From an uncultured beta proteobacterium (lineage in GTDB: Bacteria; Pseudomonadota; Gammaproteobacteria; Burkholderiales; Rhodocyclaceae), in assembly GCA_903916205.1 (NCBI GenBank), contig CAIWVX010000246.1, forward strand, positions 1 through 20,905: DNA of 20,905 nucleotides, in the 5' to 3' direction. Under the pieces are notes generated by a model. It made no database searches and was not told the DNA's origin. It saw only the letters and a list, made by a program, of their open reading frames with translations. A program made the translations under genes and the position numbers. Shown one piece after another: positions 10,311 to 14,657 of the stretch. The first letter of the stretch is position 1. Every line of letters begins with the position of its first letter.

Positions 10311-10311
10311 G

Positions 10312-10328
10312 AAAACAAGCCTTGTTTT
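10312..10328 (-). promoter_or_regulatory. 17-nt dyad overlapping the MFS ribosome site
   Basis: AAAACAAG - C - CTTGTTTT is a perfect inverted repeat with 8-bp arms around one base. On the minus strand it contains the AAGG that serves as ribosome site for the MFS gene and ends one base before its ATG. It could be an operator for a dimeric regulator. As RNA, a 6-bp stem with a 5-nt loop would mask the ribosome site. Confidence 0.45.
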
Positions 10329-10346
10329 AGGGGCGGGGAGTTTGCT

Positions 10347-10374
10347 TTGAACATCCGGTGTTGTTGGAGTTCAA
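10347..10374 (-). terminator. Weak hairpin after the methylase gene
   Basis: TTGAAC (10347-10352) pairs with GTTCAA (10369-10374), with two more inner C-G pairs. It lies directly past the methylase stop at 10382 on the minus strand. No U-run follows. A possible terminator for the ATPase-methylase operon. Confidence 0.25.
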
Positions 10375-10381
10375 TGGACTG

Positions 10382-11257
10382 TCAGGCAACAGTCTTTGTG
10401 TGCGGAATGATCTCGTCGGGAATAACAAGTTTCTGGCTGAAAAACATTACTTCACTTCCCACATAGCGACGTTGCGCCGTGTAATTCAAGCCATAACTCA
10501 GCGACTTGCTTAGCTGATACATGGCACAAATCTCTTCGGTATTGTCATAAGATACCACCCAGGACCACTTGAATTTTTTATTCTGAATTGTTTTTGCAAT
10601 GGCAACGTGGTCATCATGCTGGTAGTAGTTTCGATACAGGCCCTTGCCTTTGACGTAATAAGGCGGGTCAAGATAGATCAAAGATTGCTTCGGCAAGAAC
10701 TCCGAGCACCGATTTAAGAGATGTAATGAGTCCTCGCAATACACAGAAATATCGTCCGCACGCTTGGCTATCTCCAAGATACGCGCAGCCACAACATCTT
10801 TCTTGAATCGTGCATCCAATTTGTAATCGCCATTCTGATTCTTGCCGCCGATAACACCCGCCTTGAGAATCCCGGAGCGATTCGTCCGGTTCATAAACAA
10901 GGTTGCAAAGCCCTTTTCAACCAAACTGGCTTTGCGCTCATTTCGGAGAACCGACCGCCACTTGAACCACTCTGCGATGGTGATGGGCGTGGATTCAAGC
11001 AACTTCAGGATTGCTCGGGAATGCTGGGTTACGGCAATCCAGAAAGCGTAAATCGCAGGATCAGCGTCGTTGATGTGGATATGACTGGCATGACCATGGA
11101 AAAGCAAATCCAGCGCAACACCAGCCCCTCCCGCATACGGTTCTAAATAATGGCCGCCTGTAACCCCGTCCCCCTCCATCACCTTTGCAATGAATGGAGC
11201 GAATGGTGCCTTTCCACCAGGGTAGCGCAAGGGGCTATACAGTCTGTTTGAGAACAT
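10382..11257 (-). CDS. D12-class N6-adenine DNA methyltransferase (Dam-like)
   Basis: It transfers a methyl group from SAM to adenine N6 in DNA. D12/alpha-class motifs are in the expected order: LRYPGGK (motif X, 10-16), EPYAGGAGVAL (motif I, SAM binding, 39-49), and DPPYY (motif IV catalytic, 197-201). FMNRTNRSGILKAGVIGGKNQ is a family hallmark. I use ATG at 11257, which overlaps the ATPase stop as TGATG and has AAGG 7 nt upstream. A GTG one codon earlier (11260) is possible. The length of 291 aa is normal. The target site cannot be read from sequence. It is coupled to an OLD-like ATPase rather than a restriction enzyme, which suggests self-marking or signalling within a defence unit. Confidence 0.9.
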   Translation of the reverse strand: MFSNRLYSPLRYPGGKAPFAPFIAKVMEGDGVTGGHYLEPYAGGAGVALDLLFHGHASHIHINDADPAIYAFWIAVTQHSRAILKLLESTPITIAEWFKWRSVLRNERKASLVEKGFATLFMNRTNRSGILKAGVIGGKNQNGDYKLDARFKKDVVAARILEIAKRADDISVYCEDSLHLLNRCSEFLPKQSLIYLDPPYYVKGKGLYRNYYQHDDHVAIAKTIQNKKFKWSWVVSYDNTEEICAMYQLSKSLSYGLNYTAQRRYVGSEVMFFSQKLVIPDEIIPHTKTVA

Positions 11258-12942
11258 CACGAAACCTTCTTCAATTTTATTTCCAGCGCAGCCAGTTTGG
11301 CCACATCAACGGCATAGCCATTTTTCATCACGCCTTGGATAGTGCTCTTGAATTTCTCCAAGAAATCATTGCTGGCTACCGGATTGTTTTCGACCCAATG
11401 TTTCCAAGGATTGTATGGCTTCGCGCCAGAGGAAACTAATTTTTGAAAGTCCTCGCCCTTGTAAAAGCGCTTGAAAACCTCCCGTGGTTTATTGTCTCCC
11501 TGATATGTAGCGATCCGCTCCCTCACATTAGCAGCGTCTCCGTTGATTTCGAACTCGTTTATCACTTCACGGGCTGCATTGGTGAATACATTCCGTGTGA
11601 ACTGCATATCGTTCTTCCAAAACTCGTGGTCGGCGGGAAGGTTGTACAGGTACTCAAAGACCAACTGGTCGGGCGGCAAAATTCCGGGCAACAGAACAAC
11701 TGTTTTGAAGTTCTTTCCCTTGATCGGTTCCGCCTGATCCGCATCCAGACAGACAATGCTTTTTTGGGCAAATTCAGGAATCTTCTTCTGAATCAACTGC
11801 AAGTAGTTGGAGCAGCCAAGAGTTATCCCTTGCATGGGATTCGTGAACTTCTTTATTGGCTGTCTGCTCATTAAGGCAGCGAAGAAATCTGCCGCCTCTT
11901 TATCCTCGAAATAGACATTGATGCTCGGTAAAGTTGTCCCAGAAGCAGCGACAATGGTTTTCGTGTTGATGTCCGCACTGATTTGTGCCCAAGACCAATC
12001 CTGCATCACCTGAACATTACCGTAGGTGTTACTCAAGTAAACCGTCTTGCATCTTCTTCTGAACTGCTGGCTCTGCTCGAACGCATATTCGATCAAGACA
12101 GGCGAGTGTGATGTCATGACAATCTGGAGGTTGAGATTCTTGCATTCGCGGTCAAGCATCTTCAACAGATTCACCTGCGCAGTAGGAAACAAACCCGCAT
12201 CGGCCTCATCTATCAACAGTAACCCACCTTTATAATCGGGATACTCTTCTTTTAATTTTCTGAAAGACATCAGCGCCAAAATGATCTGGCCCGCATTATC
12301 CTCACCAGCAGAAACAGACTCGTGATTGTAGTTTTCGCCGTGCGCCACGGCTGAACTGAGCGTTCCATTCGTGCCCGTCGCATGAGAAGCGCTACGATTG
12401 AGTAGCTCATTGGTGAGCTTGATGAATTCCTGTTTGTGCTTTTTTAAGTAATCAAAGTCACTGACTTCGTAGTCTCTAGCAGCGATCGGGAAAAGACGCT
12501 TTAAACTCAGGAAGATGACAGGGTGTGTAAAATTTCTGCTCGAATTGCCAGTTGCCGTGCTGTTGTTTCTGACAACAGGCCTAGGCGAATTTCCTCGTTT
12601 CATCAGCTCTAACTTTGCCGTCGCCGCATTATCGGTATACCCATCATGCAGTTCGATGTTGACCGTCATGGAACCGGGAACATCAAATTTTTCCGAGATT
12701 CTGAAATGCTCACTGTACTGGGACTTGAATGAACCATCAGCAATTTGCCGAAATGAAAGCGCCTCATCTTTGGCGTAGTTTCTTTCAAAGCTGAAAATTT
12801 GCGCGGCAATACCGAGAATGGACGACTTGGAGGTACCGTTTTTACCGCATACGACGGTGATGTGGTCGCCAAATTCGACTTCCACATTATTTAGCGCACG
12901 GAATTTTTCAATTACCAGCTTCTTTAGTTGTGTTTTGGGCAT
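11257..12942 (-). CDS. OLD-like ABC-type ATPase with TOPRIM-like C-terminal half
   Basis: The protein is 561 aa. The N-terminal half is an SMC/ABC-type ATPase: Walker A GKNGTSKSS (33-41), signature-like SAGEDNAGQ (211-219), Walker B LLLIDEADAG (241-250), and H-loop TSHS (277-280). The C-terminal half has two TOPRIM-like marks, an acidic FEDKEAADFF (Glu346) and CLDADQ (Asp400, Asp402), which fits a metal-dependent nuclease of the OLD family. Residues about 410-561 are unassigned. In Walker A, Ser38 replaces the usual Gly before Lys. The ATG at 12942 overlaps an upstream stop as TAATG and has only a weak ribosome site, so coupling is likely. The stop overlaps the methylase start. The domain reading is firm for the ATPase and moderate for TOPRIM. 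A phage-defence role is inference. Confidence 0.82.
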   Translation of the reverse strand: MPKTQLKKLVIEKFRALNNVEVEFGDHITVVCGKNGTSKSSILGIAAQIFSFERNYAKDEALSFRQIADGSFKSQYSEHFRISEKFDVPGSMTVNIELHDGYTDNAATAKLELMKRGNSPRPVVRNNSTATGNSSRNFTHPVIFLSLKRLFPIAARDYEVSDFDYLKKHKQEFIKLTNELLNRSASHATGTNGTLSSAVAHGENYNHESVSAGEDNAGQIILALMSFRKLKEEYPDYKGGLLLIDEADAGLFPTAQVNLLKMLDRECKNLNLQIVMTSHSPVLIEYAFEQSQQFRRRCKTVYLSNTYGNVQVMQDWSWAQISADINTKTIVAASGTTLPSINVYFEDKEAADFFAALMSRQPIKKFTNPMQGITLGCSNYLQLIQKKIPEFAQKSIVCLDADQAEPIKGKNFKTVVLLPGILPPDQLVFEYLYNLPADHEFWKNDMQFTRNVFTNAAREVINEFEINGDAANVRERIATYQGDNKPREVFKRFYKGEDFQKLVSSGAKPYNPWKHWVENNPVASNDFLEKFKSTIQGVMKNGYAVDVAKLAALEIKLKKVS

Positions 12943-13160
12943 TACAACAATTCTCGATTTCTAATCTCTGCGGATTCAATTCCCCATGGCTTGCTACGGG
13001 GTGCTTTATTTTCTTCGAATTTGAGTGGAATTCGGATTGCTGGTGAGTTGCTCGATATTGTCCGGAGAATTATTCGCATCTCTGCAATTGTCCTGCATTG
13101 GTTAATAAAATCCAAGACAATCTCAATGCATAACTCCTGCGAATAAGTACTTATTCGCAT
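12942..13160 (-). CDS. Possible small leader protein of the ATPase-methylase operon
   Basis: A 72-aa frame whose TAA overlaps the ATPase ATG by one base (TAATG). I do not recognise it. The first half (QELCIEIVLDFINQ, then IAEMRIILRTI) looks helical; the second half is charged and soluble (KFEENKAPRSKPWGIESAEIRNREL). ATG 13160 is the best start, though its ribosome site is poor. The frame stays open up to 13373, so the true start is uncertain. The 20-bp palindrome begins at the G of this ATG, which would be odd for an operator unless the real start is a later codon such as the ATG at 13076. The weak ribosome site of the ATPase gene is the main argument that something is translated here. Confidence 0.4.
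   Translation of the reverse strand: MRISTYSQELCIEIVLDFINQCRTIAEMRIILRTISSNSPAIRIPLKFEENKAPRSKPWGIESAEIRNRELL
13139..13158. promoter_or_regulatory. Perfect 20-bp palindrome, operator candidate
   Basis: GCGAATAAGTACTTATTCGC reads the same on both strands. It lies 197 nt upstream of the ATPase ATG. The half-site recurs on the minus strand within AGATGCGAATAA, both at the palindrome edge and at about 13070-13081. This spacing of one full and one half site resembles controller-type operators of restriction-modification loci. No regulator gene was identified nearby. Confidence 0.55.
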
Positions 13161-13232
13161 CTTCGCTTGTGCTGTAAGGCTAAGCGCACCCAAAACCGAA
13201 AATGACCACCCGTAGTCACAGGAGGATTCGTC

Positions 13233-13391
13233 ATGGAAACCGTGCAAATTCGTGAAGCTAAAGTCAGCTTTTCCGCGCTCGTAGCTGCGGCTTAAAAAGG
13301 GAGGCCCACTTTGGTAAGCCGTCACGTTCAGCCGTGTGCGATGATCGTTTCGGTGGCCGATGGTGCAGAGCAACCAACCGCCAAACTCTGA
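13233..13391 (+). pseudogene. Phd/YefM-type antitoxin broken by a nonsense codon
   Basis: A strong AGGAGG lies 6 nt before ATG 13233. The frame reads METVQIREAKVSFSALVAAA, then TAA at 13293-13295, then KGRPTLVSRHVQPCAMIVSVADG to TGA at 13389. This is the Phd/YefM pattern: EAK near the start, then a basic Gly-Lys/Arg-Pro turn, then the SRH-x-x-P strand. The stop sits where family members usually have Glu, so a single GAA-to-TAA change explains it. The preserved ribosome site and frame suggest recent loss. A GTG or TTG restart could yield a fragment only. No intact toxin follows. Confidence 0.7.
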
Positions 13392-13678
13392 CCGGACTGG
13401 GAAAATGGTGGGGGCAAGCCGTTAATTCTGGTGCGGGCATCGCCCAATGATTCTTGCGCGTTTAGACTGGTGCAAGGCGCTGCGTGCCGCCATCGCCGAC
13501 AATCCGTTCTCATAGGGGTCTTTCAACACTTGCTGAAGGTTCTATTGCCTTGGAGCCTGTTACGGTGCGGTGTAGTGAAGACCTTTGAGGTTTACTCAAC
13601 CCATCGGCTTGATTTAACTTAAGAATTGATGTAAAAATGCTTTTATATAAAAACACCTTTGTTTGAGGATTGAAAGCG
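13392..13678. other. Decayed stretch between antitoxin remnant and vapB
   Basis: No intact gene. A short frame at 13447-13515 (ATG to TAG) reads MILARLDWCKALRAAIADNPFS and looks protein-like. The Phd frame also reads on past its second stop (DWENGGGKPLILVRASPND). These may be scraps of the lost toxin partner, shifted by indels, but I cannot assign a family. The 3' end holds the vapBC promoter region. Confidence 0.3.
13609..13652 (+). promoter_or_regulatory. vapBC promoter/operator region
   Basis: The perfect 12-bp palindrome TTTTATATAAAA (13641-13652) lies 26 nt upstream of the vapB ATG and includes -10-like TATAAA. Candidate -35 boxes are TTGATT (13609) and TTGATG (13625), neither at an ideal distance. 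VapBC pairs normally repress their own promoter through such palindromes. Confidence 0.4.
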
Positions 13679-13975
13679 ATGAGAACCACACTCGACTTAC
13701 CCGACGAAACCTTTCGTCAACTCAAAGCGCAGGCCGCGTTACGCGGTTTCAAGCTCAAAGAATTGGTGGCTCAGTTCATCGAGCGTGGGCTAGCGGCTAG
13801 CGCGGCGCAGCCAGATCAAGCCGCTCCGCGCAGCCCCTTGCCGGTGGCTATTGTGCGCGACCCGAACATACCAATGAGGCCTGCACTCACCAATGCCGAA
13901 CTTTATGCCCTCTTAGATGAAGAAGACACGGTTGAGTACCACAGCGTTTTGAATCAATCGACTCCGCCTCAATGA
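13679..13975 (+). CDS. vapB: VapB-type ribbon-helix-helix antitoxin
   Basis: The protein is 98 aa. The N-terminal 40 residues (MRTTLDLPDETFRQLKAQAA, then ELVAQFIERGL) form a ribbon-helix-helix DNA-binding fold. The acidic tail (NAELYALLDEEDTVEYHS) is the likely toxin-binding part. I start at ATG 13679, 9 nt after GAGGA; an in-frame TTG at 13670 touches the ribosome site. The stop overlaps vapC as ATGA. It neutralises VapC and probably represses the operon. Confidence 0.85.
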   Translation: MRTTLDLPDETFRQLKAQAALRGFKLKELVAQFIERGLAASAAQPDQAAPRSPLPVAIVRDPNIPMRPALTNAELYALLDEEDTVEYHSVLNQSTPPQ

Positions 13976-14409
13976 TTGATCTTCTTGACATCAACGTCTG
14001 GCTGGCCTTGGTGGACGAGAATCACGTTCACCACAGCACCGCTCGCCAGTATTGGAATGAGCAGCTCGATCAGCAAGCGGCCTTTTGCCGTGTCACTATG
14101 CTTGGCTTATTGCGCTTGAGTACCCAGCCGAATGTACTCAGTCGCACGCTCTCCAATGAGGAGGCTTGGCGTATTTACCGTCAATATCTGGCCGCCCCCG
14201 AGGTGTGCTTTCTCGCTGAACCCGTGCAAATCGAGGCGCAATTTGCCGCACTGACTCTGTCAGAGGCTATGCCCCAGCGCCTCTGGACGGATGCTTACCT
14301 TGCTGCTTTTGCCATGACTAGCGGGTGTCGATTGGTTTCTTTTGACAGCGATTTCAAGCGCTTTGCCGACCTGAACTTTCTCCACCTTGCGCCCTTGCCG
14401 TCGCTTTGA
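13972..14409 (+). CDS. vapC: VapC-type PIN-domain toxin
   Basis: A 145-aa PIN-domain ribonuclease. Acidic residues at the usual places: Asp6 (LLDINVWLAL), Asp107 (LWTDAYLAAFA), Asp125 and Asp127 (VSFDSDFKRF). The second canonical acid, normally in the helix around 41-48, is absent: that stretch reads VTMLGLLR. Variants of this kind occur in the group with RVTxLGLLRL, from general recollection. The 4-nt overlap with vapB is typical. The target RNA is unknown. Confidence 0.85.
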   Translation: MIDLLDINVWLALVDENHVHHSTARQYWNEQLDQQAAFCRVTMLGLLRLSTQPNVLSRTLSNEEAWRIYRQYLAAPEVCFLAEPVQIEAQFAALTLSEAMPQRLWTDAYLAAFAMTSGCRLVSFDSDFKRFADLNFLHLAPLPSL

Positions 14410-14657
14410 GTCTACCCACGCGCAACGATCTCCCGTACTCGAAAGCGTGGATTAAACAAGCGCCTGAGCAAGCCGCGAATCAGCGTATCGACCGGACAAC
14501 GGTCACCAGAAATCCGTTCGATGCGAAGTACAGTAAGGTAGAAGAGGCCGACTGGGAAACCTGCGTCTCGGTGTTGAACGGGATGAGTGTGAAGGCGTTG
14601 CTGTCGCGGGGGGGAGCCGCTTTACGTCAGAACCCCTCGTTGAATCCTCTAATTTGA
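14406..14657 (+). CDS. Doubtful short hypothetical ORF
   Basis: An 83-aa frame from a TTG that overlaps the vapC stop (TTGA). I recognise no domain. The middle (YSKVEEADWETCVSVLNGMSV) looks soluble and helical. Its end runs into the 3' end of hslR on the other strand. It may be a decayed gene or read-through. Apart from this frame, 14410-14626 holds nothing I can identify. Confidence 0.22.
   Translation: MSLPTRNDLPYSKAWIKQAPEQAANQRIDRTTVTRNPFDAKYSKVEEADWETCVSVLNGMSVKALLSRGGAALRQNPSLNPLI

What the first reader, a model, noticed from the sequence alone, without database searches (positions are those of the whole stretch)
10382..13160. Candidate three-part defence system: small ORF, OLD-like ATPase/TOPRIM, D12 adenine methylase
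An ATPase with Walker A/B, signature and H-loop plus a TOPRIM-like half is joined by 1-nt overlaps to an adenine methylase and probably to a small upstream protein. Known OLD contexts are solo OLD, Gabija (with a UvrD-like helicase), retron-linked and PARIS (separate TOPRIM). None of those partners is adjacent. The region also carries two toxin-antitoxin loci and sits between housekeeping genes. A plausible reading is that methylation marks self DNA, or restrains the nuclease, while the ATPase/TOPRIM protein attacks or senses unmarked DNA.
Basis: partly seen in the sequence, partly recalled or inferred. Interest (0 to 1): 0.82.

Follow-up and report, generated by a model that had tools for sequence, protein, structure and literature searches.

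The report
OLD nuclease paired with DNA methyltransferase
Two neighbouring genes, one for a nuclease-like protein of the OLD type and one for a DNA-marking enzyme already known from another anti-phage system, travel together through many bacteria and prophages, and probably form a defence kit that tells marked self DNA from unmarked invader DNA.

Summary
The core of the finding holds: an OLD-like ABC-ATPase/TOPRIM protein (561 aa) overlaps a D12 adenine methyltransferase (291 aa). Two corrections: the upstream small ORF is not conserved, so there are two parts; and the methyltransferase belongs to a named family, component B of the phage-tested system PD-λ-5 (E 8e-113). The usual PD-λ-5 partner A, a ParB/Srx-type protein, is absent here. 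The pairing is near-obligate: 41 of 41 genome loci and 54 of 54 viral-contig loci whose sequence continues past the ATPase gene hold the methyltransferase within about 2.1 kb. In E. coli, 85 of 5,426 complete genomes carry both; in the two loci I read they are cargo at a prophage end. The same methyltransferase family occurs with the ParB-type protein, with this ATPase, with far-diverged ATPases, or with ParB-type protein plus ATPase. Catalytic-type residues of both proteins are conserved. I found no name for the pair in PADLOC v2, NCBIfam or my paper searches. Best reading: a restriction-modification-like module with an OLD nuclease as restriction arm. TOPRIM fold support is weak; defence and mechanism are untested. 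New variant of a known kind.

The parts
11257..12942 (-). OLD-like ABC-ATPase/TOPRIM protein, 561 aa
   Evidence: Pfam AAA_15 2.7e-17 and AAA_21 5.3e-12; AF2 model pLDDT 91.5; Foldseek top matches GajA 8u7i/8sm3 and Thermus OLD 6p74, E 3.9e-13 to 1.7e-12, TM 0.27-0.35
12823..12846 (-). Walker A, residues 33-40 (GKNGTSKS)
   Evidence: G33, K39, S40 in 60 of 60 sequences
11971..12942 (-). N-terminal ABC-ATPase part, residues 1-324
11260..11970 (-). C-terminal TOPRIM-like plus helical part, residues 325-561
11905..11907 (-). TOPRIM-type glutamate E346
   Evidence: 60 of 60
11737..11745 (-). TOPRIM-type DxD, D400-x-D402
   Evidence: 60 of 60
10382..11260 (-). D12-class adenine methyltransferase of the PD-λ-5_B family (GTG 11260 or ATG 11257)
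   Evidence: PDLC04018 7.7e-113; Pfam MethyltransfD12 4e-16; EPxAGG and DPPY conserved
10311..14626 (.). 4.3-kb stretch between an MFS gene and an S4-domain gene that are neighbours in some relatives
   Evidence: of 18 relatives' loci examined (of 29 found) 8 show both flanking genes: gap about 17-156 nt in 5, about 0.7-1.4 kb in 3
13082..13097 (-). short element TGCAGGACAATTGCAG upstream of the ATPase gene, possible promoter or operator
   Evidence: near-identical element upstream of the ATPase gene in L027/L041 (one contig) and L082, but in only 2 of 36 distinct loci examined; one copy in the genome
   Evidence: no family hit, not conserved

Best explanation
The two genes are one mobile defence module that works like a restriction-modification system. 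The D12 methyltransferase puts N6-methyladenine on a fixed DNA motif of the host. The OLD-type protein, an ATPase-gated TOPRIM nuclease, attacks DNA that lacks the mark (phage or other incoming DNA), or is released when the mark is missing. Shown here: the conserved pairing, the conserved catalytic-type residues, the family of the methyltransferase, the mobile context and the exchange of partners. Inferred: that the methyltransferase is active, that the C-terminal half is a working TOPRIM nuclease, that methylation is what restrains it, and that the result is phage defence.
For: Pairing: 41 of 41 genome loci and 54 of 54 viral-contig loci with sequence beyond the ATPase gene also hold the methyltransferase (3 and 6 more end within it or at most 77 nt after it); 37 and 50 have it directly downstream on the same strand. 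E. coli: ATPase in 85 and methyltransferase in 85 of 5,426 genomes, one copy each, both in one place in 85; 79 of the 85 ATPase genes are at least 99% identical to the query, so these are not independent. All 6 phage records with the ATPase also hold the methyltransferase next to it, two of them being one phage, ValB1MD-2. The methyltransferase family is that of PD-λ-5, a phage-tested system whose authors used a host lacking the mrr region (PMC9519451 passages), which suggests, by recalled knowledge of Mrr, real adenine methylation. In Mycolicibacter (L051) an ATPase 73% identical to the window's sits beside a PD-λ-5 operon whose methyltransferase is only 34% identical to the window's, which fits a need for the mark rather than for one dedicated protein partner. 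EPxAGG, NRxxRSGI, GxIGG and DPPY of the methyltransferase are kept at 90% or more both with ATPase partners (63 sequences) and with A partners (24), which fits one shared target. Possible active-site residues: E346, D400, D402 60/60; D425 58 D + 2 E; K491 58/60, similar to metal ligands and lysine in Bp OLD (PMC6755086 passages).
Confidence: 0.55

Rival explanations
1. Methylation-guarded abortive infection: the methyltransferase (or the mark) acts as antitoxin or sensor, and loss of methylation or a phage anti-restriction act frees the ATPase/TOPRIM, which then cuts tRNA, RNA or host DNA and stops the cell.
Confidence: 0.27
2. The ATPase is an optional add-on of PD-λ-5 rather than a system of its own: the ParB/Srx protein A is the usual effector and the ATPase a backup.
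For: Loci with A, methyltransferase and ATPase exist: L051, L083, L074/L100, L076, L133, and Vibrio phage ValB1MD-2 with A split in two ORFs (A confirmed by PADLOC in L051, L074, L076, L083, L133 and ValB1MD-2). PADLOC's PDC-M38A is a ParB-like domain fused to an OLD-like ATPase.
Against: In 37 of 41 genome loci and 52 of 54 viral loci with room no A gene is seen in the stretch held, so the ATPase plus methyltransferase usually stands alone.
Confidence: 0.1
3. Not defence: the methyltransferase is an epigenetic regulator of phage and island genes, and the ATPase an SMC/RecF-like DNA maintenance factor of the element.
For: Many copies lie in viral contigs and prophages; the ATPase head resembles SMC and Rad50.
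Against: The TOPRIM-type residues are invariant; the position as end-of-prophage cargo beside the integrase is, as I recall, usual for accessory genes; the methyltransferase family is that of a tested defence system.
Confidence: 0.05

Closest known systems
PD-λ-5 (Vassallo et al. 2022, PMC9519451)
   Same: Same methyltransferase family (PD-Lambda-5_B, 7.7e-113), partner gene directly upstream, prophage habitat
   Different: Partner is an OLD-like ATPase/TOPRIM, not the ParB/Srx-type PD-Lambda-5_A; no PD-Lambda-5_A found in the window
Gabija GajA / class 2 OLD nucleases
   Same: N-terminal ABC-ATPase plus C-terminal TOPRIM-like part; best full-length fold matches; E, DxD and a downstream lysine conserved
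   Different: No UvrD-like GajB next to it; a methyltransferase instead; sequence identity in the fold matches about 9-13%
PARIS (AriA/AriB; proposed class 4 OLD, PMC10568477 passage)
   Same: OLD-type ATPase with a TOPRIM; PARIS chain 8ux9_A among the best C-terminal matches
   Different: ATPase and TOPRIM-like part in one protein here; methyltransferase partner
Retron-linked OLD (class 3; Eco8) and retron Eco2 TOPRIM
   Same: ATPase/TOPRIM effector; Eco8 in the full-length list, Eco2 in the C-terminal list
   Different: No reverse transcriptase among scanned ORFs and no Rfam RNA in the window
PADLOC candidate PDC-M38
   Same: PDC-M38A joins a ParB-like and an OLD-like ATPase domain in one chain, followed by a gene whose start (CEGPHD) looks TOPRIM-like by eye
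   Different: Profile similarity to the window's ATPase is remote (3.4e-13); no methyltransferase of this family in the 1.5-kb flanks of the 6 loci examined
Type II restriction-modification with D12 methyltransferase (DpnII, EcoRV type; recalled)
   Same: D12 adenine methyltransferase with a nuclease-like gene, RM-like logic; PADLOC type II methyltransferase model PDLC03358 1.7e-98
   Different: The partner is an ATPase of the OLD type, not a restriction endonuclease fold

Membership tests
PD-λ-5 | PD-Lambda-5_B methyltransferase | tested here: met
   PDLC04018 7.7e-113 over residues 6-284
PD-λ-5 | PD-Lambda-5_A protein next to it | tested here: not met
   No A hit in the window by an HMM that finds A in other loci; no PD-Lambda-5_A among the 25 shown of 133 PADLOC families for the ATPase
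PD-λ-5 | phage defence | not testable with these tools
   no experiment
OLD family nuclease | N-terminal ABC-type ATPase | tested here: met
OLD family nuclease | C-terminal TOPRIM domain in the same chain | tested here: inconclusive
   E346 and D400-x-D402 60/60; full-length fold ranks GajA and OLD first; C-terminal part alone ranks OLD first but weakly
OLD family nuclease | two-metal active site with second acidic set and lysine | tested here: inconclusive
   D425 (58 D, 2 E) and K491 (58/60) are conserved and may match E508 and K562; no match at the E404 spacing
Gabija | adjacent GajB UvrD-like helicase | tested here: not met
   no helicase among 18 Pfam-scanned ORFs
PARIS | separate AriA ATPase and AriB TOPRIM genes | tested here: not met
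   single 561-aa protein; no second TOPRIM gene among the Pfam-scanned ORFs
Retron I-B | reverse transcriptase and ncRNA | tested here: not met
   none among 18 scanned ORFs, none in the Rfam scan
Type II restriction-modification | methylation blocks cleavage at a shared DNA site | not testable with these tools
   needs methylome and cleavage assays

The most novel reading that the evidence does not exclude
One conserved adenine methyltransferase family with a fixed target is the hub of an interchangeable set of effectors: a ParB/Srx protein (PD-λ-5), this OLD ATPase/TOPRIM, far-diverged second OLD-type ATPases, or ParB protein plus ATPase. The OLD form is a separate class of restriction-modification in which an SMC-like, ATP-gated TOPRIM nuclease is the restriction arm; it would be a further class of OLD proteins, defined by a methyltransferase partner.
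Probability: 0.45. Interest if true: 0.75.

Novelty: new variant of a known kind. Interest (0 to 1): 0.62.

Why it matters
How OLD-type defence tells self from non-self is open at least for Gabija (abstract start of preprint PMC12407980, seen in the listing). A class of OLD proteins permanently tied to one methyltransferase family would give a simple, testable answer for that class. It would also show that PD-λ-5 is one branch of a modular family. Close homologues lie in E. coli prophages, so laboratory tests are easy.

Tried and rejected
Three-part system with the small ORF: rejected, see observation check. Simple Gabija, PARIS or retron: no partner genes. Exact known system: PADLOC v2 has a close family only for the methyltransferase; NCBIfam gives no hit above its cut-off for either protein. 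DefenseFinder models and REBASE were not available, so a name there is not excluded. Papers: PD-lambda-5 appears in 11 papers of the held library, none of which also holds ParB; searches for OLD plus methyltransferase contexts gave no paper that I recognised, from listings and passages, as describing the pair. Seen as passages only: PMC12629846, PMC12839542, PMC10568477, PMC10853773, PMC6755086, PMC12405507; PMC9519451 passages and section 7. A lead that the A. baumannii methylome paper (PMC10287943; outline, passages, sections 17-18) might give the target motif led nowhere: its restriction-modification system is a BglII/BstYI type. Dot et al. 2023 (OLD classes, recalled) is not held. The methyltransferase target sequence could not be deduced. 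A conserved element upstream of the ATPase was followed: three loci only, unexplained. In VIA lists of 50 rows other families may be missing; absence there was not used.

Dropped rows and limits: 9 ATPase loci whose contigs end within the ATPase gene or at most 77 nt after it were left out of the pairing count (3 genome, 6 viral). Of the 61 non-redundant ATPases picked, 59 went into the alignment with the window; L052 (long N-terminal start) and L110 (late start) were left out. The methyltransferase tree used 95 of 130 sequences after a 93% cut; loci that duplicate larger ones were left out first. The viral set holds near-copies, so 54 is not 54 independent events. The A-gene HMM was seeded with five of the loci it then flags as carrying all three genes, so those were checked independently with PADLOC. 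In E. coli, 135 genomes match part of the pair in the distant search and 85 most of it; the other 50 were not examined. ATPases of L162 and L165 are cut by the 1.5-kb flank.

Full report
What is there. Two ORFs on the minus strand, 561 aa (11257-12942) and 291/292 aa (10382-11260), overlap by one base at TGATG. Pfam gives AAA_15/AAA_21 for the first and MethyltransfD12 for the second. PADLOC gives GajA 1.8e-17, ATPase-Toprim_I-B and AriAB as best for the first, and PD-Lambda-5_B 7.7e-113 for the second; NCBIfam has no hit above its cut-off for either.

Pairing. A scan of genome contigs with a five-sequence ATPase alignment gave 44 loci in Beta- and Gammaproteobacteria, Mycobacteriaceae, Bacteroidota, Geobacter and Listeria; a scan of viral contigs gave 60. 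Nine end within the ATPase gene or at most 77 nt after it. Of the rest, 41 of 41 and 54 of 54 hold the methyltransferase; in 37 and 50 it is downstream on the same strand, starting within 100 nt of the ATPase stop in 85 of these 87 and at 102 and 210 nt in the other two. Two viral loci are convergent (L113, L132). In the other six (L051, L083, L074 and its viral twin L100, L076, L133) a PD-Lambda-5_A-type gene is also present (PADLOC E 3e-130, 4e-132, 8e-97, 9e-164 and 5e-25 for L051, L083, L074, L076 and L133). All 6 phage records with the ATPase also hold the methyltransferase next to it (two are one phage), including ValB1MD-2, where a split PD-Lambda-5_A gene, the methyltransferase and a convergent ATPase lie together. 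As a contrast, weak ATPase homologues in three relatives (L003-L006) show no methyltransferase in their 1.5-kb flanks. In complete E. coli genomes the ATPase and the methyltransferase each occur in 85 of 5,426, one copy each, together in 85; 79 of the ATPases are at least 99% identical to the query. In the two E. coli loci read (JJ1886, Ec-RL2-1X) the order is integrase, ATPase, methyltransferase, then glaH, in the second with further integrase and IS remnants before glaH; in Streptococcus phage Javan645 it is ATPase, methyltransferase, integrase. A homologue search returned 1,230 proteins at E up to 1e-10 among the 7,998 scored.

Seen from the methyltransferase. In the window's family 16 of 199 genomes hold PDLC04018 at 1e-30 or better, window included. 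Their neighbours: adjacent ATPase 4 (window included), ATPase about 3.6 kb away with a HerA-like gene and another between 1 (L029), PD-Lambda-5_A 5, short or broken ParB-like gene 4, neither 2. In a class-wide sample 19 of 369 hold it at 1e-50: window, ATPase 2, PD-Lambda-5_A 11, weak, short or cut A 3, neither 2. So in this sample A is the commoner partner. PD-Lambda-5_A carries LDxxNPR and EGNRR-type motifs; relatives are named ParB N-terminal or carry PF02195, so it looks like a ParB/Srx-type protein. I found no paper holding both terms.

Exchange of partners. On a methyltransferase tree of 95 sequences the partner label needs 14 changes; shuffled labels need 29.2 on average, none of 200 as few (quick tree, long branches present). 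Pairwise identities of ATPase and methyltransferase correlate (Spearman 0.46; 0 of 500 permutations reach it, 68 loci), so they mostly travel together. The exceptions are telling. L051 has an ATPase 73% and a methyltransferase 34% identical to the window's. L028, L162, L165 have 60-63% identical methyltransferases but 22-27% identical ATPases (those of L162 and L165 partial), and L147/L148 share 65% methyltransferase but 28% ATPase with L038. The methyltransferase is the more conserved member in 1,672 of 1,953 pairs of 63 loci; the C-terminal half of the ATPase diverges most (means 54.1% methyltransferase, 44.8% ATPase protein, 50.5% its N-terminal and 36.5% its C-terminal part). Between two E. 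coli loci DNA identity is 75-90% along the ATPase gene and jumps to 96-99% near its end and through the methyltransferase, which I read as recombination near the gene border. EPxAGG, NRxxRSGI, GxIGG and DPPY of the methyltransferase are kept at 90% or more with both main partner types.

Site. I examined 18 of the 29 loci that hold the S4-domain gene in relatives. Eight show both flanking genes: the S4-domain and MFS genes are about 17-156 nt apart in five and about 0.7-1.4 kb in three; in the window they are 4.3 kb apart. Of 59 genomes searched first, 5 (own included) gave an ATPase match at E 0.001; only the window and G028 are real relatives with the methyltransferase, the other three are weak. 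So the stretch is accessory DNA at a variable site.

Mechanism. PD-λ-5 affects plating or plaque size of all but one phage of a ten-phage panel and was built in a host lacking the mrr region; its authors call it a compacted prophage RM+Abi system (PMC9519451 passages and section 7). By analogy the methyltransferase here marks DNA and the OLD-type protein acts on unmarked DNA. Against a pure restriction model stand the equal resemblance to RNA-cleaving TOPRIMs and one locus with an intact ATPase and broken methyltransferase. Both readings need the bench.

Verdict. A real, widespread, mobile two-gene module; a variant of known kinds (OLD nucleases, PD-λ-5, restriction-modification) that I could not find named.

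Noticed in passing
L206-L209 (PDC-M38A genes): PADLOC candidate PDC-M38A is a ParB-like domain fused to an OLD-like ATPase, followed by a gene starting with a TOPRIM-like CEGPHD/CEGxxD motif: a natural fusion linking the two partner types.
   Followed up: partly
window 13082-13097 (-): Element TGCAGGACAATTGCAG, with near-identical copies upstream of the ATPase in L027/L041 and L082; in L082 a TTGCAG repeat with 11-base spacing; single copy in the window's genome.
   Followed up: partly
window 13679-14409: VapC-type PIN toxin (TIGR00028 8.4e-38) with an upstream ParD/RHH-like ORF in the same accessory stretch.
   Followed up: no
L029: An ATPase 70% identical to the divergent one of L028 lies about 3.6 kb from the methyltransferase, with a HerA-like gene and a 460-aa gene between.
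   Followed up: no
L030, L031, L032: A further methyltransferase partner set: a 371-377-aa ParB-like gene directly downstream plus a 309-312-aa gene (no Pfam hit in L030, the one tested), kept in three genera.
   Followed up: no
L203 versus L204: Sharp identity step (75-90% to 96-99%) near the ATPase/methyltransferase border between two E. coli prophage loci.
   Followed up: yes
NZ_CP077849.1, NZ_CP064203.1: Records of 3.7-4.0 Mb filed as A. baumannii plasmids in PLSDB; by size they look like chromosomes.
   Followed up: no
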